Assembly: GCA_012522185.1 (NCBI GenBank)
Contig: JAAYKY010000009.1
Coordinates: 1-64,000, forward strand
DNA: 64,000 bases
Direction: 5' to 3'
DNA from: Flavobacteriaceae bacterium
GTDB taxonomy: Bacteria; Bacteroidota; Bacteroidia; Flavobacteriales; Weeksellaceae
Positions within the stretch are counted from its first letter, which is position 1. Each line of letters begins with the position of its first letter. A program made the translations under genes and the position numbers. This document shows, piece by piece, positions 6,148 to 61,904 of the stretch. Below the pieces are notes generated by a model. It saw only the letters and a program-made list of their open reading frames with translations, was not told the origin of the DNA and did no database searches.

Positions 6148-6474
6148 CTAACCACCCACTCGCTTGACTTTAAAACCTTTTTCTGTCAGGAATTTCATGA
6201 TTTTATCTCGATAATCACCCTGAATGATGATTTTATCATCTTTGAAACTTCCGCCCACACTCAGCATTTTTTTGATTTCTTTGGCCAATTGTTTGAAGTC
6301 TTCATCGGCTCCCGTATAGCCTTCCAAAATCGTTTGGGGTTTGCCTTTGCGTTTTTCATATTTGCAAATGATGGGTTCATCCTGCATCCAAATTTTGTTG
6401 GAAGTTTCGGCGGTTTCCTCTTCTTCTTGAATGTGGTCTGGAAATAATTTTTTGAGCTGATCTTGTAAATCCAT
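6148..6474 (-). CDS. SUI1/eIF1-like translation factor (YciH family)
   Basis: 108 residues. Residues about 35-108 form the SUI1 fold: KYEKRKGKPQTILEGYTG, then FKQLAKEIKKMLSVGGSFKDDKIIIQGDYRDKIMKFLTEKGF, which matches the bacterial YciH and archaeal aIF1 pattern (K-GK..T...G, L.K.LK...G.GG..K...I.iQGd). E. coli YciH affects start-site fidelity, so a ribosome-associated role is likely. The N-terminal 35 residues are acidic. It is a stand-alone gene. Confidence 0.9.
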   Translation of the reverse strand: MDLQDQLKKLFPDHIQEEEETAETSNKIWMQDEPIICKYEKRKGKPQTILEGYTGADEDFKQLAKEIKKMLSVGGSFKDDKIIIQGDYRDKIMKFLTEKGFKVKRVGG

Positions 6475-6564: not shown

Positions 6565-7686
6565 ATGAATTTAAGCTATTGGGAACTGGATACTTACTTC
6601 CGAAATATTGATTTCCTAATCATTGGAAGTGGAATTGTAGGATTGAGCACTGCCTATCATCTGCGATTAAAACATCCCAAAGCCAAAATTATCATTATCG
6701 AAAAAGGAAGGCTTCCGGAAGGCGCAAGTACCAAAAACGCTGGATTTGCTTGTTTTGGAACCCTATCCGAAATTTTGTCTTATTTAGAAACAAATCCCAA
6801 AGAAGAAATTTACCAATTGGTGGAAAGAAGATATCGAGGATTGCAAAATTTGAGAAAGCTTTTGGGCGATGCCGCAATTGAATTCCAAGAATTAGGTGGC
6901 TACGAGGTTTTTAGGAGTGAAGATCAAGTGCTCATGGAGAAATCATTGGATCAGATGGAAGAAATCAACCGATGGCTTTTCCCTATTTTTAATCGTGAAA
7001 CATTCCGAAAGTGCGAACGAAATTTTGGGTTTAAAAATACCATTGGCACCATAGAAACTCCCTTTGAAGGACATATTCATACCGGGAAAATGATGAGGGC
7101 TTATCTCCGACTTTTGAACAGTTCCGAAGTGAGTGTACTAAATAATCTGGAAGTGAAAAATCTGACCGAATTGAACTCAAAAATAGAAGTGGAATTGAAA
7201 AATAAGTTTCGTTTTCAGGCAAGCAAAGTCTTTTTATGCACCAATGCATTTACTTCGAAATTATATGATTTGGATGTGGTGCCTGCGCGGGCACAGGTTT
7301 TAGTGACCAAACCGATTGAAAACCTTAAGGTCAAAGGTTGCTTTCACATGGACGAAGGATTTTATTTCTTCCGAAATACCGGAAACAGAATTTTATTTGG
7401 CGGCGGAAGAAACCTCGACCTCAAAGGAGAAACAACGACCGAATTTGGCACGACTGAATTGATACAAAGACAACTCGAAACCTATTTGCGTGAAATAATT
7501 CTTCCCAATCAGGATTTTGAAATCGAACATCGATGGAGCGGAATCATGGGAATGGGTTCCCAAAGAAATCCTATCGTCCGGCAATTATCCGAAAATCTAT
7601 TTTGTGGCGTACGCCTGACCGGAACCGGAATTGCCATCGGAACGATGGTCGGAGAAGAATTAGCAAATCTTTTAGAGCCTGTTTAA
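6565..7686 (+). CDS. FAD-dependent amino-acid/glycine oxidase-like oxidoreductase (DAO family)
   Basis: 373 residues. The FAD-binding GxGxxG loop is at residues about 20-30 ([17 protein letters not shown]), followed by the acidic ribose-binding IIIEKG and the DAO-type [13 protein letters not shown]. The C-terminal part ([39 protein letters not shown]) completes the DAO fold. These enzymes oxidise secondary or primary amines such as glycine, sarcosine or D-amino acids; the substrate is unknown. The stop codon overlaps the convergent hemL stop by 4 bp. Confidence 0.88.
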
Positions 7687-14008: not shown

Positions 14009-14113
14009 GTGGAAGCGATTTTCGTTCTTATTGAAGTGAATCCTTTATTTTCTTAAATAATTTCACGTTTTTTGGAAAGAAATTTGATTTCGTTCGAACT
14101 AAATTTAAATTTA

Positions 14114-16978
14114 ATGAAGAAGTTTTTTTGCCTTTTTTCGGTATTGATTTTTACTCAAATTCTGAATGCACAACAGGATTCTCCCTTTTATGTGGATTCG
14201 CTCCAAGTCAAATGGGTGGAGGAGAAATATAACTCTATGACATTGGAAGAAAAAGTCGGACAATTATTTGTCGTAGCGGCTTATTCCAACCGAGATGCAG
14301 CACACGAAGCCGAAATTGAAAATTTGGTAAAAACCGAAGCCATCGGCGGACTGATTTTTATGCAAGATTTAGCGGTTAAACAAGCCGAATTGACCAATCG
14401 CTATAACAAAGTGGCAAAAATACCTTTGTTGATAGGAATGGATGCAGAATGGGGATTGGCTATGCGCTTAAAAGAAGTAAAACGTTTTCCTTGGGCAATG
14501 GCCGTAGGTGCTGTGGAGGACAATTATTTAGTGAAACAAATGGGAAATGCCATCGGTGAACAAGCCAATACAATGGGAGTGCATTTTAATTTTGCGCCGG
14601 TCGTGGACGTGAATACCAATCCCAAAAATCCGATCATCGGCAATCGTTCCTTTGGTTCCGATGTGGAAAATGTCGCCCAAAAAGGCATCCATTATATGTT
14701 GGGAATGAAAGAAAAAGGTGTTTTGGCATCGGCCAAACATTTTCCCGGACATGGCGACACAAGTCAAGATTCACACAAAACCCTTCCGCTGGTCAATCAG
14801 GATTTATCCCGATTGAAATCGGTGGAATTGGCACCTTTTCAGAAATTAATCGACGCCGGCGTTCCGGCGATTATGGTGGCGCATCTCAATGTTCCGGCGT
14901 TGGACAATAGCGGATTGCCTTCCACTTTATCCAAAAAAATAATTACCGATTTATTGAAAAATGAAATGAATTTCAAAGGTCTGATTGTGACCGATGCTTT
15001 GAATATGGACGGCGTCGCTAAGGCTTATCCGCCGGGTGAAGTTGATGCGAGAGCTTTTGAGGCCGGGAACGATATTTTGTTGTTTTCACAAGCCGTAAAA
15101 ACCGGAAAACAGAAAATCATAGCGAAAATTAATTCGGGTGAAATTTCAGAAGAAAGATTGGCCGAAAGTGTCAAGAAAATTTTAATGGCGAAATATTTCG
15201 TAGGATTGCATAACAGCAAACCGATTGATACAAAAGATTTGGTTTTAAGACTCAATCCGCCTGCTCATCAGGCTCTGACTTCAAAGCTTTATGAAAACGC
15301 AGCTACTTTGATCAAAAACGAATCGGATTTACTTCCGATTAAAAATTTAGCCGAAACCAAAATCGCTTTTGTGCCTTTGGAAGAAGCTGAATTTGAAACC
15401 TTTCATCAGAATTTGAATTTTCACGTTCAAACAGATTTAGTCCGAATAAAATCGGTTGCGGAAGTTTCGAAATTAAAAGACTACGATTATGTCATCATAG
15501 GATTCCATAAATCCAACGAAACCGCTTATAAAAGTTATAAAATTTCGGCCAATTCCAATGCGATTTTGAAAGCAGCAAGTGCACAAAACAATACGATTGC
15601 GGTGCTTTTCGGAAGTCCTTATGGATTGATGGATTTGGATTTGACTTCCACAAAAGCGGCCTTGGTAATGTACCAGAATTTGGATATGACCCAAAATGCT
15701 GCCGCGGGAATCATTTTTGGTGCAATCGGTGCGAAAGGAAAATTGCCGGTCGATGTCAATGCCGAATGGAAATACGGAAAATCACTAAAAACCGAGTCTT
15801 TACAACGTTTGGGTTTTGCAATTCCCGAGGCTGTGGGCTTGAAACCGGAAATCATTCAACAAATTGACCAATTGGCACAGAAAGCCATTGACGAAGGAAC
15901 CACACCGGGTCTTCAAATCGTCGCAGCCAAAAACGGAAAAGTGATTTACGATAAATCTTTTGGTTACCAAACCATTGAACGAAAAAAAAAAGTAAGCCCT
16001 AAAGATGTTTACGATGTGGCTTCCGTTACCAAAGTAACGGCTACTTTACCCTTGCTGATGCAGGAAGTCAGTAATGGCGAGCTCAACCTGGACCAGAATC
16101 TGGCGAGTATTCTACCCGAATCTGCCCGAACCGACAAAGGAAATCTGAAACTTAGGGAAATTCTGGCGCATCAGTCCGGACTGCCGCCTTGGATTGGGTT
16201 TTACAAAGAGTCGGTAAATGTGCAAAACGCAAGATTGTATTTGGATTATTATTCGAGAAAGCAAGATGAGGAACATCCGATCAAAGTGACCGATAATATT
16301 TACATAATTGGTTCGATTCGCGATACGATTATGACCGATATTATGTATGCGCCATTGGGTTCTAAAAAGTACGAATACAGCGATTTGGGTTATTATTTGT
16401 TTCAGGAATATTTGGAAAAAAAGTATCAAAAACCTTTGAATTTATTGGTGGATGAAAAGATTTATCAGCCGATGCAATTGAGTTCCACCACTTATTTACC
16501 ACGAGAAAAATTTGATTTGGAATTCATTGTTCCGAGTGCAAGAGACCGGATTTACCGAAATCAATTGTTGCACGGATTTGTGCAGGACGAAGGTGCAGCG
16601 ATGATGGGAGGTGTTGCCGGACACGCCGGCTTGTTTTCCAATGCGCAGGATATGGCCAAAATGATGCAGATGTATCTCAACGGTGGAAGTTATGGCGGTG
16701 TGAATTTTTTCAGTCCTCAGGCTCTACAGGAGTTTACGAAAGACCAGTATTCGGGCAATCGGAGAGGAGCAGGTTTTGATAAACTTTCGGACCGAACCAA
16801 TAATAGTTATGGGCATTTTGGCTATACAGGAACGATGGTTTGGAACGATCCCGATCATCAGTTGGTTTTGGTTTTCCTGTCCAATCGGGTAAATGTGAGT
16901 ACCGAAAGCAATGATTTATCCCGAAAGAAAGTCCGCGAAAATATACGGCAGGCGCTGTATGATGCGGTGGTGAGGTGA
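14114..16978 (+). CDS. GH3 beta-N-acetylglucosaminidase fused to beta-lactamase-like serine hydrolase
   Basis: 954 residues. A signal peptide (about 1-20) is followed by a glycoside hydrolase family 3 domain: KHFPGHGDTSQDSHKTLPLV carries the His/Asp general-acid dyad of NagZ-type enzymes and VTDALNMDGVAKAY the nucleophile Asp. A C-terminal class C/PBP-like serine hydrolase domain begins near residue 580, with the SxxK motif in DVASVTKVTATLPLL and a late HFGYTGT motif. The fusion is a known Bacteroidota arrangement and should act on peptidoglycan fragments in the periplasm. ATG 14114 (MKKFFCLFSVL) is the signal-peptide start. The last 114 bp recur at 17759-17872. Confidence 0.93.
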   Translation: MKKFFCLFSVLIFTQILNAQQDSPFYVDSLQVKWVEEKYNSMTLEEKVGQLFVVAAYSNRDAAHEAEIENLVKTEAIGGLIFMQDLAVKQAELTNRYNKVAKIPLLIGMDAEWGLAMRLKEVKRFPWAMAVGAVEDNYLVKQMGNAIGEQANTMGVHFNFAPVVDVNTNPKNPIIGNRSFGSDVENVAQKGIHYMLGMKEKGVLASAKHFPGHGDTSQDSHKTLPLVNQDLSRLKSVELAPFQKLIDAGVPAIMVAHLNVPALDNSGLPSTLSKKIITDLLKNEMNFKGLIVTDALNMDGVAKAYPPGEVDARAFEAGNDILLFSQAVKTGKQKIIAKINSGEISEERLAESVKKILMAKYFVGLHNSKPIDTKDLVLRLNPPAHQALTSKLYENAATLIKNESDLLPIKNLAETKIAFVPLEEAEFETFHQNLNFHVQTDLVRIKSVAEVSKLKDYDYVIIGFHKSNETAYKSYKISANSNAILKAASAQNNTIAVLFGSPYGLMDLDLTSTKAALVMYQNLDMTQNAAAGIIFGAIGAKGKLPVDVNAEWKYGKSLKTESLQRLGFAIPEAVGLKPEIIQQIDQLAQKAIDEGTTPGLQIVAAKNGKVIYDKSFGYQTIERKKKVSPKDVYDVASVTKVTATLPLLMQEVSNGELNLDQNLASILPESARTDKGNLKLREILAHQSGLPPWIGFYKESVNVQNARLYLDYYSRKQDEEHPIKVTDNIYIIGSIRDTIMTDIMYAPLGSKKYEYSDLGYYLFQEYLEKKYQKPLNLLVDEKIYQPMQLSSTTYLPREKFDLEFIVPSARDRIYRNQLLHGFVQDEGAAMMGGVAGHAGLFSNAQDMAKMMQMYLNGGSYGGVNFFSPQALQEFTKDQYSGNRRGAGFDKLSDRTNNSYGHFGYTGTMVWNDPDHQLVLVFLSNRVNVSTESNDLSRKKVRENIRQALYDAVVR
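16865..16978 (+). repeat. direct repeat copy A (3' end of GH3 gene)
   Basis: These 114 bp, ending at the GH3 stop codon, match 17759-17872 at about 104 of 114 positions. Nearly all differences are synonymous; only the final codon changes (Arg here, Asn in copy B). The repeat brackets the zeta-like kinase and its small partner. Confidence 0.9.
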
Positions 16979-16979
16979 A

Positions 16980-17570
16980 ATGGAAGTTATGGATAAAATT
17001 CTATACATAATTGGAGGTTGTAACGGTGCAGGGAAAACGACGGCATCTTTTACAATTTTACCAGAAATTCTGGATTGTAAAGAATTTGTGAATGCTGATG
17101 AAATTGCAAAAGGTATTTCTCCTTTTCAGCCGGAAAAGGTTTCTTTTGAAGCCGGAAGAATTATGCTGACTCGCATTCAAGAATTATTAAGTGAGGATGA
17201 GAATTTTTCTTTTGAAACAACTTTAGCAACCAAAAGTTATAGAAATACTGTCTTAGAAGCAAAGAAATTAGGCTATAAAGTTGTTCTTCTTTTCTTTTGG
17301 TTACAAACGATTGAATTAGCAAAAGAAAGAGTGAAAATTAGAGTAAAAGAAGGCGGGCATAACATTCCTGAAAATGTTATTGAGAAAAGATTTTTAAAGG
17401 GAATAAACAATTTGTTTCAAATATATCTTCCCATCGTAGATTTGTGTCTTATTTTTGATAATTCGGAAGGTCAACACGAGCTTATCGCTCAAAAAACCTT
17501 ATCAGAAAAGTTAGAGATAATAAATTTCCGTAAATTTGAAAAACTAAAAAGTTATCATGACGACCATTGA
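16980..17570 (+). CDS. zeta-toxin-like P-loop kinase
   Basis: 196 residues. The Walker A loop IIGGCNGAGKTTASF lies at residues 11-25, followed by VNADEIAKGISPF and FSFETTLATKSY, the arrangement of zeta-toxin and COG4185 'predicted ABC-type ATPase' proteins. Zeta toxins phosphorylate UDP-N-acetylglucosamine and so block peptidoglycan synthesis; chromosomal relatives may instead be small-molecule kinases. An in-frame ATG at 16989 is an equally good start. The gene begins 2 bp after the GH3 stop and overlaps the next small ORF by 14 bp. Lower GC than the GH3 gene and the duplicated flank point to insertion. Confidence 0.85.
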   Translation: MEVMDKILYIIGGCNGAGKTTASFTILPEILDCKEFVNADEIAKGISPFQPEKVSFEAGRIMLTRIQELLSEDENFSFETTLATKSYRNTVLEAKKLGYKVVLLFFWLQTIELAKERVKIRVKEGGHNIPENVIEKRFLKGINNLFQIYLPIVDLCLIFDNSEGQHELIAQKTLSEKLEIINFRKFEKLKSYHDDH

Positions 17571-17718
17571 GAAACAAATTGAACAAAAAAATAAAATCCT
17601 GAAAGGTTTGGAAAAAGCCTATGAAAATTTGATTCAGTTTAAAATCAAAAATAACAGCGTTTTAGTTATTCAAAAGGATGATGAAATTATCAAGGTTGAT
17701 CCCAAAACACTGAAATAA
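17557..17718 (+). CDS. small partner protein of the zeta-like kinase (53 residues)
   Basis: ATG 17557 to TAA 17718, starting inside the kinase gene's last codons. The peptide begins MTTIEKQIEQKNKILKGLEK and ends in DDEIIKVDPKTLK: a charged helical N-terminal half (coiled-coil-like, about residues 4-25) and a beta-type C-terminal half. The overlap and the tight bracket by the repeats suggest the pair moves and acts together. It might be an antitoxin or accessory factor, but epsilon antitoxins are larger and usually precede zeta; no family was recognised. Confidence 0.6.
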   Translation: MTTIEKQIEQKNKILKGLEKAYENLIQFKIKNNSVLVIQKDDEIIKVDPKTLK

Positions 17719-17758
17719 TTAATCCCCTTTGTCTTAATTCTCAATCATCCACTGTAAA

Positions 17759-17872
17759 GTTTTGGTTTTCCTCTCCAATCGGGTAAATGTGAGTACCGAA
17801 AGCAATGATTTGTCCCGAAAGAAAGTCCGCGAAAATATCAGACAAGCTTTGTATGATGCGGTGGTGAACTGA
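17759..17872 (+). pseudogene. duplicated 3' end of the GH3-serine hydrolase gene (copy B)
   Basis: This fragment encodes the last 37 residues of the GH3 fusion (VLVFLSNRVNVSTESNDLSR onward) and a stop codon, without any start. Codon differences from copy A (CTC/CTG, TTG/TTA, ATC/ATA, AGA/CGG, CAA/CAG, GCT/GCG, TTG/CTG) are all silent. It is probably the original gene end, displaced when the kinase cassette came in with a second allele's 3' end. Confidence 0.8.
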
Positions 17873-18216
17873 GGTTTTTAGAATTCCCAATCAATTTTAT
17901 CAATCTCTTTCATCAATCTATCCGTTTCGGTAATGCAACGATGATTTTTGATAACGGTTCTCAGCTAGGGATCTTTACCACTGAACTTCCTTCGAAAAAC
18001 TGAACTTTAATTTTTAACACTTTCCTGTCCTACGAAGCACGAAACCCCTGCTTGGGTATAGGTGATGTTATGCCTTCGCCCTTCTTTTTCAGTCGTCTGT
18101 TTGTAGTCATATCGTGTCTGTTTGGGTGCGTTGGCTTGGTGGCTCTTTTGTAAAACTCGGCTTGTGTGTTGGCTTGAGCGGTTTTGCAAATGTGTATGGC
18201 TTTATGCGTTGGCATT
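17873..18216. other. island spacer with gene remnant and GTTGGCTTG motifs
   Basis: No intact gene. On the minus strand a short open stretch ending at 17878 reads HRCITETDRLMKEIDKIDWEF and a stop, the look of a decayed C terminus. GATAACGGTT occurs at 17950-17959 and again at 22457-22466. GTTGGCTTG occurs at 18130 and 18168 and GTTGGCA at 18208; related copies lie beyond the restriction gene at 22394 and 22436. Confidence 0.45.
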
Positions 18217-21200
18217 TTATTCTAAATACTTTTTCAAAATTTTCTCCTTGTGTTTCGGAATATCTGCAATTTGCTTTTCCAATTCAGCTATTTTGGTTTC
18301 AATCTTTTCTATTTCTGCAACTACCTTTTTTTGTTCTTCGATAGGTGGCAAAGGGATTTTGATACTATTGAGATTTTTTTGATTGAGTTTTGGTTGAGCT
18401 TGTCCTGTTATGTATTCCGAAATATCAGTTTGGTTAATATATAGTTCTACGAGCTTATGTGTCGCATTGTCTTCAAATTTTAAGACGTGGGCGTGATTGT
18501 TGACCCAAATTTTACCTGTTGCGGTAAAAGCAATTGGATAAACTCTTGATTTTAAATTAGCACCATCTTCAGAAATTAGCAAAACTGTATCATCAATCAG
18601 GTAATCAGCTACAAAATCAACAACTCCTGAGGCACCATAATAAGGATAAACACCATTCTCTCTATCACTTTTAGTGACTGGCTTTCGAAGATTATCAAGA
18701 TTTTCAGATATGCTTTCTAAAGTAAACTTTTCGTATCTGTTTAAATCATTAATAATTTCTTTTATTTCATTTTGATATGAATGTATTTCCTCAACCGCTT
18801 TTTGCTCTTGCTTTTCCATTGCTTCAATTTCAGAAACTATTTTTTTCTGAATATCGAGTGGAGGGAGAGGGATTCGAATATCTAATAAATTACCTCTGTT
18901 CAAACCTCCTTGAGCTTGCCCTGTAATATTAGCTTTCAATAATTCTTGTCCTTTTTTTGAAAGTAGCAAATTGAATAAATATCCTTGAATGGAATTTTCA
19001 TTCGCTCTCAAAAGAAATACGTGTTCATTTATCATTGAACTTTCATAGCCCAAATCATTAGTTCTGAATAATGCAACCTTTCCTGTTAAAGCGCCATCCT
19101 TGCAAATCAAAATATCTAAATCTTTTAAGATGCCTTGCTTTGAAGAATTGAAAAAATCAATCGGCACAAATTTCAAGTTATTCTTGTTTATTGATATTCG
19201 ACCATCTAAGCCAATATGTTCACCTCCCAAGCTTGGGATTCCTTCTAAATATTCACCAACGCCACCTTTGGGCCTATTACCACTTTCTAATACTTCTAAA
19301 ACTTGAGATAATTTAATTTGCTCAAACTTACTTTCAATTACGACTTTTTTTTTAGCGGAGAGCGAAATATTTTTTTCAAAGTCCACTCGGTCAAAAGTGA
19401 ACATATCCACCAAGTTATGGTAGCTCACATTTTGCTGTAAATTTTCTGGTACGTCTACATCAAACTCACCATTAAAAGCTTTGTAAATGTAGGTACTGGC
19501 TTTTTCGGGGTTGGTAAAACTATCGGCATCATACAATTGAGTACACTCGTCTATACTTTTGCTGCGTTGTATAGGGTGTATGCCTTCACTACCTCTACGG
19601 TTGCTAAACTCATAGCCTAAAAAGCGTTTTTCTTCGTTCTTTTCGCCTGTTTTTACCAATACCAACTTTTGAGGATAAGCCAAGATGAAATACAGTAATT
19701 TATCTTGTTCAAGGGCTAGTATGTTAGTCCAAAGTTCTGCTTCATTTTTGGCTTTTATTTTCTTGGTGTATTCTTTATAAATCTCGTGTTGCTCAATGTT
19801 TTTGTTAGGTGTTTTTTGCAAGAGTGTTTTATAATCATCAAAAGAAATCGTGTCCCAAACGTGAGCTACATATTTTGCAATTGGTTTTTCAATGCCGTTT
19901 ATGGTTACATCTTGCAGACTTACAAAGCATTTTTTGATAGCTTCTTCAACATTGTAAGCATCTGCATTATTTCTGCGTCTTAGGAACAATGTAACGGTAT
20001 TTGTTCCCGTTGCCATAAAGGTATTAGAACCTAATTCTGCTATTCCTAAAATTTCAAAGTGCTTAAATAGAATTTCTCTTGTTTGCGAATAAATGCCTGT
20101 GTTGCTCAAAATACTACTCGGTAAAATGATACCTGCCACACCGCCATCTTTGAGTAGTTGCTTTGTTCTTTCAATAAACAAACATTCTATTTCAGAACTT
20201 TGGTCGGTGAGTCGGTTGTATAATTCAAAACCTAATTTTGCTTTTTCCTCATCCATTAAACCTTTAAAAGCTGAAACGGAATATGGCGGATTTGAAATGA
20301 TAATATCAAATTGCTTGTTGTCTTGAGGATAGGTTTTGTCGGTTTCTTTCAATAAGTCTTTGAACTCCTTTGAAGTGGCAAAATCTCCCAAACCATCACC
20401 GTGTATCACTTTTGCCAAACCATCACCGTGTAAATAACAACTTACTTTGGCTGTTTTAACTAATCGGTAATCCTTTTCAATTCCATAAACGTAATCTTCA
20501 GCCCAATCAAATTGGTCTTCTTTCCACTTTTTGATTGCTCTTTGGGTAGTGGGGTTAAATTTACTTTCGTCTAAATTATCAATGTACGTTTGAACTTCCT
20601 CCATTGATTCTGTGAGGAAATGTCCGCTTCCTGCTGCATAATCAATTATTGTTGGTAACAAGTCATTTTTATTTCCTTGCTCAATTTTCTGTGCTGTTAT
20701 TTCTTGAAATGGTAAACTCTTAATAATGAAACGAGCAATAGGAACAGGAGTAAAAAACTGTCCTGATTCTTGTTTTAAACCTGTGGTTAAAAGCAATTCA
20801 AAGAAATCACTTAAGAACTGTTGACGGTAATTGTAGCGGATTTGATAAACTTGAAGTAGTTCAACGACTTCCTTTACCACTTTTGCATTTTCTTCAAAAG
20901 ATGCATCATCATACACCTCTTTTATGGCAAATTCGTTATTCTTTTTAAGTCGGATTTCCGTTAATATTTCTTTGAACTTGTCTTTGTATTGTGTTTCTAC
21001 TTGTAAAAACTGTTTGTCAAATTCACTGTCGCTTACATCTGTAACTTTCTTTTCTAAAAGTTCAAGCATTCCTCTGTTGTAAAGGTCTGTCAATCTTTTT
21101 TGAAATGAAATATGATTGTCTTCTCCTTCAAGCCATTGGAAATGCAATTGCTCGTCAGGGTTTCTGTTTTCGTCAACAATTTTGCAAAGGAAAAGAGTAA

Positions 21201-21948
21201 ATATTTTATTGAATGCGTTTGGCTTATCAGAAACTACGTTATGTCTTAATATTTCCAAGAAACGATTGAAAATAAAACTACTGTCCTCTTGTTTTAAAAC
21301 CTTTAAATCATTTTTGGTAAGAGCTTTACTTTGGAATTCATAAGGCGTTACCCAATTTTCAAAAATACCGTTGGTTTTAGGTAGTTTGTTCCAACGCTCA
21401 AAAAAGTCCTTTACATTTCCTGCTTGTCGGTAATCGTCTTCAATTTTTACAATTATGTTTTTGAACTCAATGTTGTTCCCTTGAAGTTGCGAAGCATAAA
21501 GCATAAGAATATCAGCATCCTTATCTTGTTGGAAGTAAGTAAATAGCTGACCACCGTTTCGTTCCAAGTTTTTAAATTCTTTCTCAAACTCTGCTCCCCA
21601 AGTCTTGCATTCAATCATCAAATAAGCCGAACCATCATCACGAGTTACCAAAATATCCAATCGTCCACTTGTGCCGTGTCCTGTTCTCCAAGTTTTTTCT
21701 AAAACAACATTTTGAGGAGGATAACCTTTTTCTAAAAGTCTGTCAATACACTCAAGTACAACCCAATTTTCAGCCTGTGAAAAATTTTGAGTGGTTTTAC
21801 TTTCGCCTTTAATCTTGTTGCCGAAATTGAAAATTGAATTTTCAAAATCAATTTCAATGGCGTAGCCATTGTATTTTTTATGAAAAATTCCAGATGTATT
21901 TTCTTTAGGTGTAAATCCTAATGTTTGTATGAAGTTTTTGTAGTTCAT
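18217..21948 (-). CDS. single-chain restriction-modification-specificity protein (type IIG/RMS-like)
   Basis: 1243 residues. N-terminal PD-(D/E)XK nuclease: D98 in GRLDILV, then E113 and K115 in MIECKTW. Central gamma-class N6-adenine methylase: GQFFTP (about 396), motif I DYAAGSGHF (about 437) and motif IV NPPY (553). C-terminal half, from about residue 890, carries two HsdS-like target-recognition domains separated by long helices (IPLPPLDIQKKIVSEIEAME and IPLPPIEEQKKVVAEIEKIE), so the target is probably bipartite. One chain thus holds cleavage, methylation and specificity. It starts at the TAATG overlap with the XRE controller gene. AT-rich composition and repeats at both sides suggest recent acquisition. 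Confidence 0.92.
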   Translation of the reverse strand: MNYKNFIQTLGFTPKENTSGIFHKKYNGYAIEIDFENSIFNFGNKIKGESKTTQNFSQAENWVVLECIDRLLEKGYPPQNVVLEKTWRTGHGTSGRLDILVTRDDGSAYLMIECKTWGAEFEKEFKNLERNGGQLFTYFQQDKDADILMLYASQLQGNNIEFKNIIVKIEDDYRQAGNVKDFFERWNKLPKTNGIFENWVTPYEFQSKALTKNDLKVLKQEDSSFIFNRFLEILRHNVVSDKPNAFNKIFTLFLCKIVDENRNPDEQLHFQWLEGEDNHISFQKRLTDLYNRGMLELLEKKVTDVSDSEFDKQFLQVETQYKDKFKEILTEIRLKKNNEFAIKEVYDDASFEENAKVVKEVVELLQVYQIRYNYRQQFLSDFFELLLTTGLKQESGQFFTPVPIARFIIKSLPFQEITAQKIEQGNKNDLLPTIIDYAAGSGHFLTESMEEVQTYIDNLDESKFNPTTQRAIKKWKEDQFDWAEDYVYGIEKDYRLVKTAKVSCYLHGDGLAKVIHGDGLGDFATSKEFKDLLKETDKTYPQDNKQFDIIISNPPYSVSAFKGLMDEEKAKLGFELYNRLTDQSSEIECLFIERTKQLLKDGGVAGIILPSSILSNTGIYSQTREILFKHFEILGIAELGSNTFMATGTNTVTLFLRRRNNADAYNVEEAIKKCFVSLQDVTINGIEKPIAKYVAHVWDTISFDDYKTLLQKTPNKNIEQHEIYKEYTKKIKAKNEAELWTNILALEQDKLLYFILAYPQKLVLVKTGEKNEEKRFLGYEFSNRRGSEGIHPIQRSKSIDECTQLYDADSFTNPEKASTYIYKAFNGEFDVDVPENLQQNVSYHNLVDMFTFDRVDFEKNISLSAKKKVVIESKFEQIKLSQVLEVLESGNRPKGGVGEYLEGIPSLGGEHIGLDGRISINKNNLKFVPIDFFNSSKQGILKDLDILICKDGALTGKVALFRTNDLGYESSMINEHVFLLRANENSIQGYLFNLLLSKKGQELLKANITGQAQGGLNRGNLLDIRIPLPPLDIQKKIVSEIEAMEKQEQKAVEEIHSYQNEIKEIINDLNRYEKFTLESISENLDNLRKPVTKSDRENGVYPYYGASGVVDFVADYLIDDTVLLISEDGANLKSRVYPIAFTATGKIWVNNHAHVLKFEDNATHKLVELYINQTDISEYITGQAQPKLNQKNLNSIKIPLPPIEEQKKVVAEIEKIETKIAELEKQIADIPKHKEKILKKYLE

Positions 21949-22271
21949 TAGAATTTAATTTTTCCTTGTTTTACATTCTTATTTCTCAAATATTTTGACT
22001 GGCTTTCAGCTACCGTGAAAACAGCATCTGAGCATTCGTATTTATGAGCTTCTTCAACCAATTTGTCAGCAACATACAGGTCTTTTAGCTCCGAGTAGTC
22101 CATTTCTAAAAAACTGGCAAGAGCCTCTAAGCTAGCAAAGGGAAATTTTTTTTTCCCTGTTTCTATTTTAGAAATCTCTGTCATAATGATGCCGAAAGGT
22201 TATCCAAATTCACTTTGGTTTAATCCTCTTTTATTTCTTTCAGCTCTTAAAAACTCTCGAAATGTTGCCAT
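21948..22271 (-). pseudogene. XRE-family controller protein of the R-M system, interrupted by an in-frame TAA
   Basis: Reading from ATG 22271, codons 1-23 give MATFREFLRAERNKRGLNQS then EFG; codon 24 (22202-22200) is TAA; the same frame then continues PFGIIMTEISKIETGKKKFPF to the stop at 21948. Together this is a complete 107-residue HTH protein with the stop inside the DNA-binding motif. Either it is a broken gene, translation restarts at ATG 22184 giving 78 residues, or the base is an error. The stop overlaps the start of the R-M gene (TAATG), so translational coupling is expected. Such controllers delay nuclease expression until methylation is established. Confidence 0.75.
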
Positions 22272-22340: not shown

Positions 22341-22439
22341 TTTTTTCGTCCTTAAGTGGGTCGGCAAAAAATGACTCTTTTGGTTTTTAGAGCGTTGGCT
22401 TGTATGTCGGAAAAACCAAATGTGCCATTTGTGCGGTTG

Positions 22440-22700
22440 GCTTTTTTACACTGACCGATAACGGTTTCGGCTATACGTAGTGCGGGATTTGAAAGCTGAA
22501 AGTTTCAAATCGGCACGAAGTAGAGCGAAGACGTTTTTATATTTTAAATTTTCACTAAATTTACAAAAGGCGAAGCGGGGTCGCCCTTATGGTAGGTACC
22601 AAACTTTCCAAAAGTTGCTGCAAGTCTCCACGAAAAGTATGTTCGGTTGCGTAACCAAGTTTATAACGATTATTTATGTTGTCAATGTATTGTTCTAAAG
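22440..22700. repeat. hairpin-rich non-coding repeat-like element
   Basis: Contains a perfect 9-bp stem GATTTGAAA/TTTCAAATC (22486-22511) and a second stem GGCGA/TCGCC (22569-22585). The layout AACGGTTTCGGCTATACG, GTGCGGGATTTGAAAG, AAAAGGCGAAGCG is, from memory, like a sequence found next to many R-M and toxin genes in Flavobacteriia. The ORFs crossing it are not credible. Only one full copy is present in this window. Confidence 0.5.
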
Positions 22701-25242: not shown

Positions 25243-25824
25243 ATGAAATCCATTTGTGTGTTTTGTGCTTCGAGTTTGGGCAATCATCCGGTGTATGCGG
25301 AAACAGCTTTTGAACTGGGTGAAATTCTTGCCGAAAACGGAATTGAACTGATTTACGGTGGCGCTCAAGTCGGTTTGATGGGGAAAGTTGCCGACGGAGC
25401 TTTGTTCAAAAACGGCAAAGTAACGGGCATCATCCCGGGATTTCTTCAGACTAAGGAAATTGCACACCATTCGCTCAACGAATTGATCACCGTGCAAACT
25501 ATGCACGAAAGAAAAGCACTGATGCACGACCGTTCCGATGCGTTTATTGCACTTCCCGGCGGATTTGGAACGATGGAAGAATTATTTGAAATCCTCACTT
25601 GGGCGCAGTTGAGTTTGCATCAGAAACCGATTGGCGTTTTGAATATCAATGGATATTACGATCCGCTGATTCAATTGGTCGATAAAATGATTGAAGAAGA
25701 ACTTTTGCGAAACGAATACAAAGGAATGCTGCTCATCAGCGACTCGATCGAAGATTTATTGAGCCAAATGAATTTGTATGAAGTCCCGACCGTTAAAAAA
25801 TGGATCGGAACGGAAATAATGTGA
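25243..25824 (+). CDS. LOG family nucleotide phosphoribohydrolase (TIGR00730)
   Basis: 193 residues. The signature loops GGAQVGLMG (about 39-47) and LPGGFGTMEELFEILTWAQL (about 104-123) are complete. Family members hydrolyse nucleoside 5'-monophosphates to base and ribose-5-phosphate, including cytokinin nucleotides, and are often mis-named lysine decarboxylases. It lies downstream of the TonB receptor after a 132-bp gap and upstream of bshA by 70 bp. Confidence 0.93.
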   Translation: MKSICVFCASSLGNHPVYAETAFELGEILAENGIELIYGGAQVGLMGKVADGALFKNGKVTGIIPGFLQTKEIAHHSLNELITVQTMHERKALMHDRSDAFIALPGGFGTMEELFEILTWAQLSLHQKPIGVLNINGYYDPLIQLVDKMIEEELLRNEYKGMLLISDSIEDLLSQMNLYEVPTVKKWIGTEIM

Positions 25825-51350: not shown

Positions 51351-51463
51351 AAAGTCAAAATTTGAGCAAAAGTAGGGAATTTTCAGCTTTCGAACTCCGA
51401 GAAAAATTAGTTGTGCTGTATAATGTATTCTTGTAGAATGTGTTTTTGTCACCCGAAGCTCCT

Positions 51464-51539
51464 TGTCATCCAGACGATAGGAAGGATCTAAGGAGCGTAT
51501 AGAGATTCATCACACTCATTCTTCGTGTTCTGAATGACA
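51464..51539. repeat. palindromic element R1
   Basis: 76 bp with imperfect terminal inverted repeats TGTCATCCAGA ... TTCTGAATGACA, inner blocks CGATAGGAAGGATCTAAGG and CACTCATTCTTCGTG. It is one of seven related copies in 51-62 kb. Confidence 0.9.
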
Positions 51540-51590
51540 GCTAACCTCTTTCTTCTTGTCTGCCAAAGCTCCTTGTCACCCGAAGCTCCT

Positions 51591-51787
51591 TGTCATCCAG
51601 ACGATAGGAAGGATCTAAGGAGCTTCTAGAGATTCATCACACTCATTCTTCGTGTTCTGAATGACAGCTAGCTCCTTGTCACTCAGAGCTGAGTTTACGA
51701 AGCGAAGAGTCTCAGGTTTTCTTGCTGTAAAATGTATATTGTATTCTTGTATATTGTACTTCGAACTTCGCCCTCCTATGTTCTACG
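51591..51787. repeat. composite repeat block, left copy (R2 plus tail)
   Basis: Palindromic element R2 (51591-51666) is followed by a TGTCACTCAGAGCTGAG segment (51677-51716), a CTCAGGTTTTCTTGCTGTA segment and a 21-bp tail ending CCTCCTATGTTCTACG. The same order recurs at 57592-57844 in the same direction. Confidence 0.85.
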
Positions 51788-57071: not shown

Positions 57072-57591
57072 ATTCGATAAGATTAGTTTGGAATGGATCA
57101 ACGGCTCGGTGAGCAACTCATCGGGTCAGGAGATCCATAATATTCATTTAAATTCTGCCCCAAAGGTAGATAGACCGAGGCAGGAAAGTGTTAGGATAGC
57201 GTTAAGCTTATGTTCATTTAATTTTAGGGTTATTAGGACTGCAAATTTAAGGATTTTATAAAACCACTCAAAATCAAAGCCTTAAATGTAAACCACAAAC
57301 CCTCCTCCCAATCCATTGGCTATCCCCAATCCTTTAGGACAACATAGCTCCTTGTCACCCGAAGCTCCTTTTCATCCAGACGATAGGAGGGGTCTAAGGA
57401 GCTTGTGTAGATTCATGACACTCATTCTTCGTGTTCTGAATGACAGCGTCCTTCTGTCTACGGTTGTAGTGTGTCACTCAGAGCTGAGTTTACGAAGCGA
57501 AGAGTCTCAGGAGCTTGTATAGATTCATGACACTCATTCTTCGTGTTCTGAATGACAACGAACCTCTTTCTTCTTGTCTGCCAAAGCTCCT
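57072..57591. other. intergenic region with palindromic elements R3 and R4
   Basis: R3 (57370-57445) and R4 (57472-57557) belong to the TGTCATCCAGA family; R4 has the left half of the CTCAGAGCTGAG type joined to the common right half. The region 57072-57369 upstream of the large gene holds no recognisable gene. ORFs here are read through the repeats and are not real. Confidence 0.75.
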
Positions 57592-57844
57592 TGTCATCCA
57601 GACGATAGGATGGATCTAAGGAGCCTGTATAGATTCATCACACTCATTCTTCGTGTTCGGTCCCGAGGCTTCGGGAGACAACGTCTTTTTTTTACAGTTG
57701 TATTATGTCACTCAGAGCATTTGATATTAAGAGGAAAATCTTCCAGTGGAAGATTGGAAAAGCGAGGCGAAGAGTCTCAGGTTTTCTTACTGTAGATTGT
57801 ATTTCGAGCTTCGAACTTCGAGTTTCGCCCTCCTATGTTCTACG
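57592..57844. repeat. composite repeat block, right copy (R5 plus tail)
   Basis: R5 (57592-57680) has a variant right end containing TCCCGAGGCTTCGGGA. It is followed by a TGTCACTCAGAG segment (57706-57780), CTCAGGTTTTCTTACTGTA and the 21-bp tail (57824-57844), in the same order and orientation as the left copy at 51591-51787. Confidence 0.85.
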
Positions 57845-57919: not shown

Positions 57920-58159
57920 ATGACGCATGCAGAAAGACATATAGTTGAAGCTTACTCAAATATTTTTGAAGGTTTGAGTTCAATCAGTAAACTTGAATTA
58001 CTTGAAAAACTTGCTCAATCGATAAGGAAGGATTCAAAATCTAAGGAAAAGGAGTTTTTCAAATCTTTTGGAGCATTTGCATCTGATAAATCAGCTGAAG
58101 ATATTGCCAAAGAAATCAAAGAAAGTAGAAAGTTTAGAGAAAAGGATTTAAAACTCTAA
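57920..58159 (+). CDS. VapB-like antitoxin
   Basis: 79 residues, strongly charged and helical (LSSISKLELLEKLAQSIRKDSKSKEKEFFKSFGAF ... EDIAKEIKESRKFREKDLKL). The pattern 'sKlELLekL..Si' with a C-terminal ESRxFRxKDLKL resembles antitoxins that precede PIN toxins in Bacteroidota. The C-terminal tail would wrap around the toxin's active site. It ends 4 bp before the toxin gene; the pair shares one promoter. Confidence 0.8.
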   Translation: MTHAERHIVEAYSNIFEGLSSISKLELLEKLAQSIRKDSKSKEKEFFKSFGAFASDKSAEDIAKEIKESRKFREKDLKL

Positions 58160-58163
58160 GGGT

Positions 58164-58568
58164 ATGCAATATTTATTAGACACAAATATTTGCATATTTT
58201 TCCTACGAGGAAAACTCAACCTTGATAAAATAATTAGAGAAAAGGGAATTGAAAATTGTTTCATTTCTGAATTAACCATTTTTGAATTGAGATATGGTGC
58301 AGAAAATAGTGATAATCCAAAAAAATCTCACGAAGCTGTTGATAAATTCATAAGAGGACTGACTGCAATTCCAATTATTAGCTCGGTTAAAAAATACGCT
58401 GAAACTAAAGTAGCATTGAGAAATAAAGGAACTCCAATGCATGATGAATTTGATTTAATAATTGGGGTAACAGCTCTTACAAACGAACTTGTGTTAGTAA
58501 CTGACAACCTAAAGGATTTCAAATTCATCAAAAACCTAAAAATAGAAAACTGGTTAGAAAGAAAATAA
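58164..58568 (+). CDS. vapC: PIN-domain ribonuclease toxin (VapC family)
   Basis: 134 residues. The four acidic residues of the PIN active site are in place: Asp6 (LLDTNIC), Glu41 (FELRYGAE), Asp97 (DEFDLIIG) and Asp114 (LVTDNLKDF). VapC toxins cut tRNA or rRNA and are held inactive by the cognate antitoxin just upstream. The final residues FKFIKNLKIENWL are typical of the family. It is flanked on both sides by palindromic repeats. Confidence 0.93.
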   Translation: MQYLLDTNICIFFLRGKLNLDKIIREKGIENCFISELTIFELRYGAENSDNPKKSHEAVDKFIRGLTAIPIISSVKKYAETKVALRNKGTPMHDEFDLIIGVTALTNELVLVTDNLKDFKFIKNLKIENWLERK

Positions 58569-58681
58569 ATTTCACACCCCACAGAAATCTACGAACATCC
58601 GCGCTTTCAGCGTTTTTTTTCTTTGCTGTAGAATGTAGATTGTATTCTTGTAGAATGTGTTTTTACGAGTTTCGAGCTCCT

Positions 58682-58770
58682 TATCATCCAGACGATAGGA
58701 AGGATCTAAGGGGCCTGTATAGATTCATCACACTCATTCTTCGTGTTCGGTCCCGAGCCTTCGGGAGACA
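58682..58770. repeat. palindromic element R6
   Basis: 89 bp, TATCATCCAGA left end and the variant right end with TCCCGAGCCTTCGGGA, closely similar to R5. The sequence before it (58624-58670) repeats the GCTGTAGAATGTA...ATTCTTGTAGAATGTG segment also seen at 51417-51448. Confidence 0.88.
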
Positions 58771-58807
58771 ATTAACCCCTTAAAAGCCTTAACCCCTCCG
58801 CGTTAGC

Positions 58808-61201: not shown

Positions 61202-61339
61202 TGTCATTCAGAATATTTGATATGAAGAGGGAAATCTTCCAGTAGAAGATTGGAAAAGCTCCTTGTCATCCAGACGATAGGAAGGATCTAAGGAGCCTGT
61301 ATAGATTCATCACACTCATTCTTCGTGTTCGGAATGACA
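61202..61339. repeat. palindromic element R7 with upstream half-element
   Basis: R7 (61264-61339, TGTCATCCAGA ... GGAATGACA) is preceded by a TGTCATTCAGAATATTTGAT segment (61202-61263) related to that at 57706-57758, including a CTTCCAGTAGAAGATTGG stem. No gene is seen here. Confidence 0.85.
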
Positions 61340-61904
61340 ACGAACCCCTTAAAAAAACCTACCCAGTAGATATTGCCCCCTTAGTGAAAAATCTTCGTGT
61401 TCTTTGTGGTAAAAAACACACAACTCTTCCTTCTAACTTCTAATTTCTAACCTCTAATTTCCAGCCTGAAAATCCATCAAAAAACACCCATCCCAAAAAT
61501 AAAAATACCCCTAAACGGCGAAAAAAATCCCCTTATTCCATAGATACTCCATAGATACTCCCAGTATACTCCCAGTCAACCCTCAGTATACTCCCAGTCA
61601 GAAAACCCCAAAAAACCATGACATACATGCGTTTAAACGCCATAATAGGACAAAAACGCCATAAATTCCAAAAAGCCGATACCCCAAAACGGCGAAATTT
61701 AGACTTCGATTTTTTAGCCTCAAAAACAACCAAAATACAGGCCTCATTTTAACTTAAAATACGGAGATTTACTTTCTCATTTCATATAGGAATGAAAAAA
61801 TTATACAACCCAACTTTAAGCCTCAAAACTCAAACTTTAAACCTTGAATTTTCCCCGACATAAAAATTTTTCCGACCTTCGGTAATCGAAACGGAAATGT
61901 ACAA
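61340..61904. other. gene-free interval with 11-bp tandem repeat
   Basis: 61538-61601 holds six units of an 11-bp repeat (two CCATAGATACT, then CCCAGTATACT and near copies). Elsewhere AACGGCGAAA occurs at 61514 and 61688 and AACGCCATAA at 61636 and 61655. The minus-strand ORF through this DNA (66 codons) shows no protein-like composition. Confidence 0.6.

What the first reader, a model, noticed from the sequence alone, without database searches (positions are those of the whole stretch)
16865..17872. Zeta-like kinase cassette inserted at a gene end, with the 3' end of the target gene duplicated
A 114-bp direct repeat ends the GH3 gene (16865-16978) and recurs as an orphan at 17759-17872; between them lie only the P-loop kinase and a 53-codon ORF. 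About ten bases differ, and all but those in the final codon are silent. Silent-only divergence means both copies evolved as coding sequence, so copy A probably came in with the cassette from another lineage's allele and restored the stop end. That suggests cassette spread by homologous recombination in the conserved flank, or an element that carries a gene-restoring tail, rather than a simple target-site duplication.
Basis: partly seen in the sequence, partly recalled or inferred. Interest (0 to 1): 0.72.

Follow-up and report, generated by a model that had tools for sequence, protein, structure and literature searches.

The report
Toxin-like gene pair inserted behind gene
A small mobile gene pair (a zeta-toxin-like kinase and its partner) sits behind a host gene whose last 114 bases are present twice, and the same pair is framed by doubled gene ends behind several other, unrelated genes in Bacteroidota, which suggests that it spreads by ordinary DNA recombination while leaving the host gene whole.

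Summary
A 114-bp direct repeat ends the GH3/beta-lactamase-domain gene (16865-16978) and recurs as an orphan (17759-17872): 10 mismatches, 7 silent codons, last codon Arg/Asn. Only a zeta-like kinase and an overlapping 53-codon ORF lie between. All five same-genus genomes have one GH3 end; the two nearest go straight from GH3 to the LOG gene. The kinase+ORF53 bicistron is a sporadic Bacteroidota module, framed by a duplicated 3' end of a neighbouring gene at seven unrelated targets (GH3, hutU, carB, pyrH, three others; an eighth is weaker): 6/80 kinases versus 0/310 other ORFs in the same loci (p=6e-5). At carB, empty-site Flavobacterium show that the orphan is the junction with the native downstream gene, and two species share a payload 97% identical between flanks about 90% identical, with breakpoints in the repeats. 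Orphan/genic copies are biased to silent changes; in the window, duplication followed by decay is disfavoured (P=0.002). Best reading: insertion with long target duplication, by homologous recombination anchored in the gene's 3' end, with a tail from a diverged allele. It is a new variant of a process known for restriction-modification genes. Which copy was imported in the window could not be settled.

The parts
14114..16978 (+). Target gene: glycoside hydrolase family 3 (PF00933, PF01915) with C-terminal beta-lactamase/esterase domain (PF00144); the ORF extends to a TTG at 14072
   Evidence: matches in 56 of 59 relatives
16865..16978 (+). Copy A of the 114-bp repeat: last 37 codons and stop of the intact GH3 gene
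16980..17570 (+). Zeta-like P-loop kinase (start more likely 16989 by homologues); PF06414 37.1 bits, over its cut-off of 22.3; predicted fold nearest to AvrRxo1, PezT and zeta
17557..17718 (+). 53-aa partner ORF overlapping the kinase by 14 nt; conserved next to the kinase in most loci; no known family
17719..17758 (.). Spacer between payload genes and orphan tail; distal edge of the inserted unit
17759..17872 (+). Copy B: orphan 3' end of a GH3 allele, open to its stop, silent-only differences except the last codon

Best explanation
The 894-bp unit (114-bp gene tail plus 780-bp payload) is a small mobile bicistron, a zeta-like kinase with a 53-aa partner that is probably an addiction or toxin-antitoxin-like pair, inserted at the 3' end of a host gene with a long target duplication. 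The most likely step is homologous (RecA-type) recombination: incoming DNA carrying the payload next to a GH3 3' end from a diverged lineage recombined by a single crossover, or by one homologous and one illegitimate end, within the resident GH3 3' end. The gene keeps a complete end and the second end is left as an orphan beyond the payload. Shown: the repeat; a single GH3 end and no kinase at this site in congeners where the site could be read; recurrence of the bicistron with duplicated gene ends at unrelated targets; the empty-site structure at carB; interspecies exchange of a carB payload with breakpoints in the tails; silent-biased divergence of the copies. Inferred: RecA, the single crossover, the form of the incoming DNA, and toxin-antitoxin function. 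Not known: which GH3 copy was imported.
For: Repeat and silent divergence; simulation P=0.002 against duplication followed by decay. Nearest congeners G001 and G002 have GH3 followed directly by the LOG gene; G004 has other genes in that gap; all five congeners have one GH3 3' end each. The bicistron is sporadic in the family (about 28 of 296 genomes have close matches). Duplicated neighbour 3' ends frame it at hutU (G152), a 240-aa gene (G159), a 365-aa gene, pyrH, a 228-aa gene and carB, plus a shorter, mostly post-stop repeat behind a 409-aa gene. Enrichment 6/80 kinases versus 0/310 other ORFs, p=6.4e-5; carB counted once, p=0.0015. Pooled over 12 orphan/genic pairs: 50 synonymous and 28 non-synonymous codons. 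At carB, relatives without the kinase run from carB straight into ORF132 or YkgJ; in G052 the orphan continues into ORF132 as in the empty sites while the genic copy continues into the kinase. L163/L164 payload 22/789 mismatches against 66/662 in the flanks, p=1.4e-8; four-fold sites 91.7% against 67.3%. Repeat lengths at carB vary from 119 to 639 bp, as expected of homologous recombination rather than a fixed att core. In E. coli, single crossovers with incoming circular DNA gave lacZ duplications of 109-950 bp (PMC3240628).
Against: No relative close enough exists in the held set to show which GH3 copy is native; differing sites match relatives both ways. For a first arrival at a new gene, homologous recombination alone does not explain how the payload acquired that gene's tail, so an illegitimate step is needed. 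Many kinase loci have no detectable flanking duplication (57 of 80 lack any tight direct repeat of 40 bp or more), so other routes exist. Silent divergence could also arise if the genic end was overwritten by an allele from another strain after an ordinary duplication. Several orphans do show decay (stop codons, gaps).
Confidence: 0.6

Rival explanations
1. Insertion with long target duplication in the strict sense: an unknown or replicative event copied 114 bp of the resident gene at insertion, so the copies were identical at birth; later allele exchange or drift made them differ.
For: Same anatomy as the long target duplications described for restriction-modification genes (PMC3031569 and PMC1643837). 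In G159 the two copies are 98% identical over 52 bp.
Against: Silent-only differences in the window (P=0.002) and the pooled silent bias are hard to get from a neutral orphan; they need a second step, import of a foreign allele into the genic end.
Confidence: 0.2
2. Site-specific integration: a tyrosine recombinase acting in trans uses gene 3' ends as att sites, and the element carries a gene-restoring att tail, as islands in tRNA gene ends do.
For: The gene-restoring 3' tail is the typical anatomy. All ten genomes tested hold integrase-like proteins with partial matches to the integron integrase model, but so do all 14 control genomes.
Against: No integrase in the 780-bp payload. At one target, carB, repeat lengths vary from 119 to 639 bp. 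Targets are unrelated genes, and the orientation to the target varies. No integron integrase match over the cut-off.
Confidence: 0.1
3. Integron-like cassette capture: the bicistron is a gene cassette moved by attC-like hairpins, and the GH3 site is a secondary target.
For: In some relatives the same bicistron lies in arrays of repeats with long inverted arms and GTTAGGC/GCCTAAC-type ends (L042; hairpin z-scores -2.1 to -3.5).
Against: The window copies do not fold unusually (z -1.0 and -1.5) and are host coding sequence; cassette capture does not duplicate 114 bp of target.
Confidence: 0.07
4. Assembly or chance artefact.
For: The window comes from a draft assembly of 63 contigs.
Against: The two copies differ at 10 sites, the payload has different composition, and the same anatomy recurs in independently sequenced genomes.
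Confidence: 0.03

Closest known systems
Insertion with long target duplication of restriction-modification genes (Nobusato et al. 2000, as cited in PMC1643837 and PMC3031569; the original was not held)
   Same: A small addiction-type module with no transposase, flanked by a long and variable direct duplication of the target, absent from relatives.
   Different: Payload is a zeta-like kinase pair in Bacteroidota. Wherever recognised, the duplicated segment includes the 3' end of the target gene. The copies differ like alleles of separate lineages. Exchange between species with breakpoints in the repeats is seen.
Single-crossover insertion and homology-facilitated illegitimate recombination (PMC3240628)
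   Same: Homologous recombination at one side gives insertions with duplications of 109-950 bp of the target end.
   Different: There selected plasmid insertions in E. coli; here natural insertions inferred from sequence.
Epsilon/zeta and PezAT toxin-antitoxin systems
   Same: Kinase fold and Pfam Zeta_toxin match.
   Different: The partner is a 53-aa ORF downstream with no match to a known antitoxin family; toxicity untested.
Integrative elements in tRNA or protein gene 3' ends
   Same: The gene end is restored by a tail and a second end is left as an orphan.
   Different: No integrase, payload under 0.8 kb, repeat length not fixed.
Integron gene cassettes
   Same: Small payload; the same bicistron occurs in attC-like arrays elsewhere (L042).
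   Different: No attC at this site.

Membership tests
Insertion with long target duplication | Payload absent at the homologous site of relatives | tested here: met
   G001 and G002 have GH3 followed directly by LOG; no kinase match in G002-G005, and G001's copy is at another site
Insertion with long target duplication | Direct repeat of target sequence, tens to hundreds of bp, on both sides of the payload | tested here: met
   114 bp, 91%
Insertion with long target duplication | Only one copy of the repeated segment in relatives without the payload | tested here: met
   one match in each of five congeners
Insertion with long target duplication | No transposase, integrase or terminal inverted repeats in the payload | tested here: met
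   two ORFs only; the only listed inverted pair near the edges is 21 nt at 81% complementarity, like many other listed pairs
Insertion with long target duplication | Copies identical at birth | tested here: inconclusive
   silent-only divergence argues for different alleles, but later allele import cannot be excluded
Epsilon/zeta toxin-antitoxin | Zeta/PezT kinase fold | tested here: met
   PF06414 37.1 bits, over the cut-off; top 12 fold matches are zeta-type proteins
Epsilon/zeta toxin-antitoxin | Upstream epsilon or PezA antitoxin gene | tested here: not met
   GH3 is upstream; the partner is downstream and without family match
Epsilon/zeta toxin-antitoxin | Kinase toxic, partner neutralises | not testable with these tools
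   needs expression tests
Integron cassette | attC site at the cassette end | tested here: not met
   window repeats fold little better than shuffles (z -1.0 and -1.5)
Integron cassette | Integron integrase in the genome | tested here: not met
   no TIGR02249 match over the cut-off in ten genomes including G000; partial matches only
Gene-end integrative element | Integrase gene in the element | tested here: not met
Gene-end integrative element | Fixed att core length at a given target | tested here: not met
   119-639 bp at carB

The most novel reading that the evidence does not exclude
A class of minimal mobile units without any enzyme of their own: a toxin-antitoxin-like pair joined to the 3' tail of a host gene. 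Host recombination excises and inserts it as a circle or fragment at that gene's end in other strains. The gene is always restored, copies stack up behind hot-spot genes such as carB, and the unit occasionally gains the tail of a new gene.
Probability: 0.3. Interest if true: 0.75.

Novelty: new variant of a known kind. Interest (0 to 1): 0.56.

Why it matters
How small addiction modules without transposases move has been an open question since long target duplications were noticed in Helicobacter. Because the duplicated segment here is coding sequence, silent versus non-silent changes tell whether the copies were born identical or came from different lineages. That turns the mechanism into a testable sequence question, with many natural replicates in Bacteroidota and a hot spot (carB 3' end) where empty, single and stacked states can be compared.

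Tried and rejected
Polarising copy A against B with congeners failed: the nearest GH3 is about 79% identical in DNA, its tail aligns poorly, and the differing sites match relatives both ways. attC-like structure at the window repeats: not found. Kinase on phages: no match; on plasmids: only distant relatives, below 60%. The key paper on mobile restriction-modification forms was not held, so the comparison rests on papers citing it and the 2000 paper. Terminator-sized repeats behind a 272-aa gene (L101, L102; 30-49 bp) and a 409-aa gene (L148, L151, L152; 43-46 bp) lie almost wholly past the stop and may be plain terminators, so they are not counted in the control test. Some carB-site neighbours (L231, L232, L158) show no orphan within reach: either decayed or inserted otherwise.
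Full report
OBSERVATION. The repeat exists exactly as described: 114 bp, start-to-start 894 bp, 10 mismatches. Copy A is the end of an intact GH3/beta-lactamase-domain gene. Copy B is open to its own stop. Seven codons differ silently and the last codon is Arg in A and Asn in B. Eight of the ten differences lie in the last 35 bp (P=0.001). The payload between them has 30.6% G+C against 41.6% for the gene and holds only the kinase and a 53-aa ORF that overlaps it by 14 nt. Homologues begin at M-x-[DE]-K-x-LYII, so the kinase start is probably 16989 rather than 16980.

SITE IN RELATIVES. The genome (G000) lies in a Flavobacteriales family that includes Chryseobacterium: family member G252's contig and the named Chryseobacterium polytrichastri contig have the same length, 57,372 bases, and carry identical kinases. 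In the two nearest congeners, G001 and G002, GH3 is followed directly by the LOG-family gene, which in the window lies at 25243. G004 has two other genes in that gap. All five congeners carry a single GH3 3' end. So the window holds at least two inserts between GH3 and LOG: the kinase unit, and beyond the orphan a stretch with a type IIG restriction enzyme and a TonB receptor. G001 carries the same bicistron elsewhere, 36 bp behind a 931-aa UvrA-like gene, without a repeat.

THE BICISTRON IS A MOBILE MODULE. Close kinase relatives occur in about 28 of 296 family genomes, scattered over genera, nearly all with the small ORF behind. A scan of named genomes gave 80 loci, mostly Bacteroidota. The predicted structure (pLDDT 82) matches AvrRxo1, PezT and zeta best, and Pfam Zeta_toxin is over its cut-off. 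It is therefore zeta-like, but no epsilon-type antitoxin lies upstream.

DUPLICATED GENE ENDS RECUR. Besides GH3, the bicistron is framed by a second copy of a neighbouring gene's 3' end at hutU in G152 (two orphans), a 240-aa gene in G159 (52 bp, 98%), a 365-aa gene (183 bp, 91%), pyrH (187 bp, 96%), a 228-aa gene (69 bp, 88%) and carB in several Flavobacterium. With GH3 that makes seven targets. An eighth, a 409-aa gene (43-46 bp, mostly past the stop), is weaker and may be a plain terminator repeat. In the 80 loci found without regard to repeats, 6 kinases but none of 310 other ORFs of 100 aa or more are framed in this way (p=6.4e-5; carB counted once, p=0.0015). The gene names hutU, pyrH and carB rest on reading the translated sequences, not on a family search. 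The orientation of the bicistron relative to the target gene varies.

carB AS A NATURAL EXPERIMENT. The five kinases at carB form one clade (99/96). Relatives without the kinase run from carB straight into ORF132 or YkgJ. In G052 the orphan copy continues into ORF132 just as the empty sites do (matched to +318 past the stop), while the genic copy follows carB to about +100 to +150 and then gives way to the kinase. So the orphan marks the native downstream junction and the payload plus one tail is what was added. In G578 and G428 other cargo lies behind carB with orphan ends of 639, 163 and 178 bp, so the process is not confined to the kinase. L164 holds the order carB, kinase, orphan, ORF132, orphan, YkgJ: stacked insertions. 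L166 has a truncated second kinase next to its distal orphan.

EXCHANGE BETWEEN SPECIES. Between F. weaverense (L163) and F. flabelliforme (L164) the payload has 22 mismatches in 789 bp, while the orphan tail and the genic tail with the carB end have 66 in 662 (p=1.4e-8). Four-fold sites agree at 91.7% in the kinase and 67.3% in carB (p=5e-5). The change from high to low identity falls in the repeats. This is what recombination inside the tails would give.

BORN IDENTICAL OR NOT. Over 12 orphan/genic pairs, 50 codons differ silently and 28 not; several pairs share a locus and are not independent. In the window, with a neutral orphan and a purified gene, 10 differences would give 5.6 amino-acid changes on average and 1 or fewer with P=0.002. 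At carB, orphan-to-genic divergence within a genome (about 8-10% in L163 and L166) is of the size seen between species, and one orphan of L166 is closer to other species' ends than to its own. This favours copies from different lineages. An ordinary duplication followed by import of a foreign allele into the genic end remains possible.

MECHANISM. A single crossover with DNA carrying payload plus gene tail gives exactly this anatomy. In E. coli such events produced lacZ duplications of 109-950 bp (PMC3240628). Natural competence is reported in Riemerella, a relative, though not in F. johnsoniae under the same conditions (PMC7965970). A site-specific integrase is less likely, because repeat length varies at one target and none is encoded. 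How a payload first gains the tail of a new gene is not explained and needs an illegitimate step.

KNOWN OR NEW. Insertion with long target duplication is described for restriction-modification genes in H. pylori (cited in PMC3031569 and PMC1643837). The present case meets its anatomical features and adds a different payload, another phylum, repeated use of gene 3' ends, allele-like divergence of the copies and a traced exchange between species: a new variant of a known kind. LIMITS: no close relative to polarise A and B; no genome-wide survey of G000; the carB evidence comes from another genus.

Noticed in passing
window 18217-22184 (-): Fused 1243-aa type IIG restriction-modification enzyme (PADLOC REase_MTase_IIG, 798 bits) with a small 78-aa upstream ORF, lying between the orphan GH3 end and the LOG gene: a second insert at the same hot spot.
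   Followed up: partly
window 22390-22570: Stretch with ends resembling attC-like repeats of Bacteroidota (GATAACGGTTTCGGCTATACGTAGTGCGGG...), single copy; the similar-looking stretch at 17936-18084 does not fold.
   Followed up: no
window 51446-51670, 57363-57681, 58675-58771, 61256-61350: Family of about 90-bp intergenic repeats (AGCTCCTTGTCATCCAGACGATAGG...) that fold into hairpins; two of them frame a putative VapBC-like pair at 57920-58568.
   Followed up: partly
L229 (G578 contig 16): Behind carB, several kb of cargo including a PIN-type pair, then a 639-bp orphan of the carB end, then another small gene and a third carB end.
   Followed up: partly
L042 (G091), also L040, L045, L048, L056: The same bicistron lies between attC-like hairpin repeats, although no integron integrase passes its cut-off in these genomes.
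   Followed up: partly
G000:C62:85238-86053 and similar places in other genomes: A 360-400-aa integrase-like protein matches the integron integrase model in two parts with a gap at positions 180-240, below cut-off; it might be the enzyme of those arrays.
   Followed up: no
L107 (G200), 6288-6368 and 7291-7371 of the reversed locus: A 267-aa gene next to the kinase is itself framed by an 81-bp repeat of the region behind a 689-aa gene.
   Followed up: no
L100 (G008:C100): Two copies of the small partner ORF, one behind a remnant of the kinase start, with 134- and 229-bp repeats between them.
   Followed up: no
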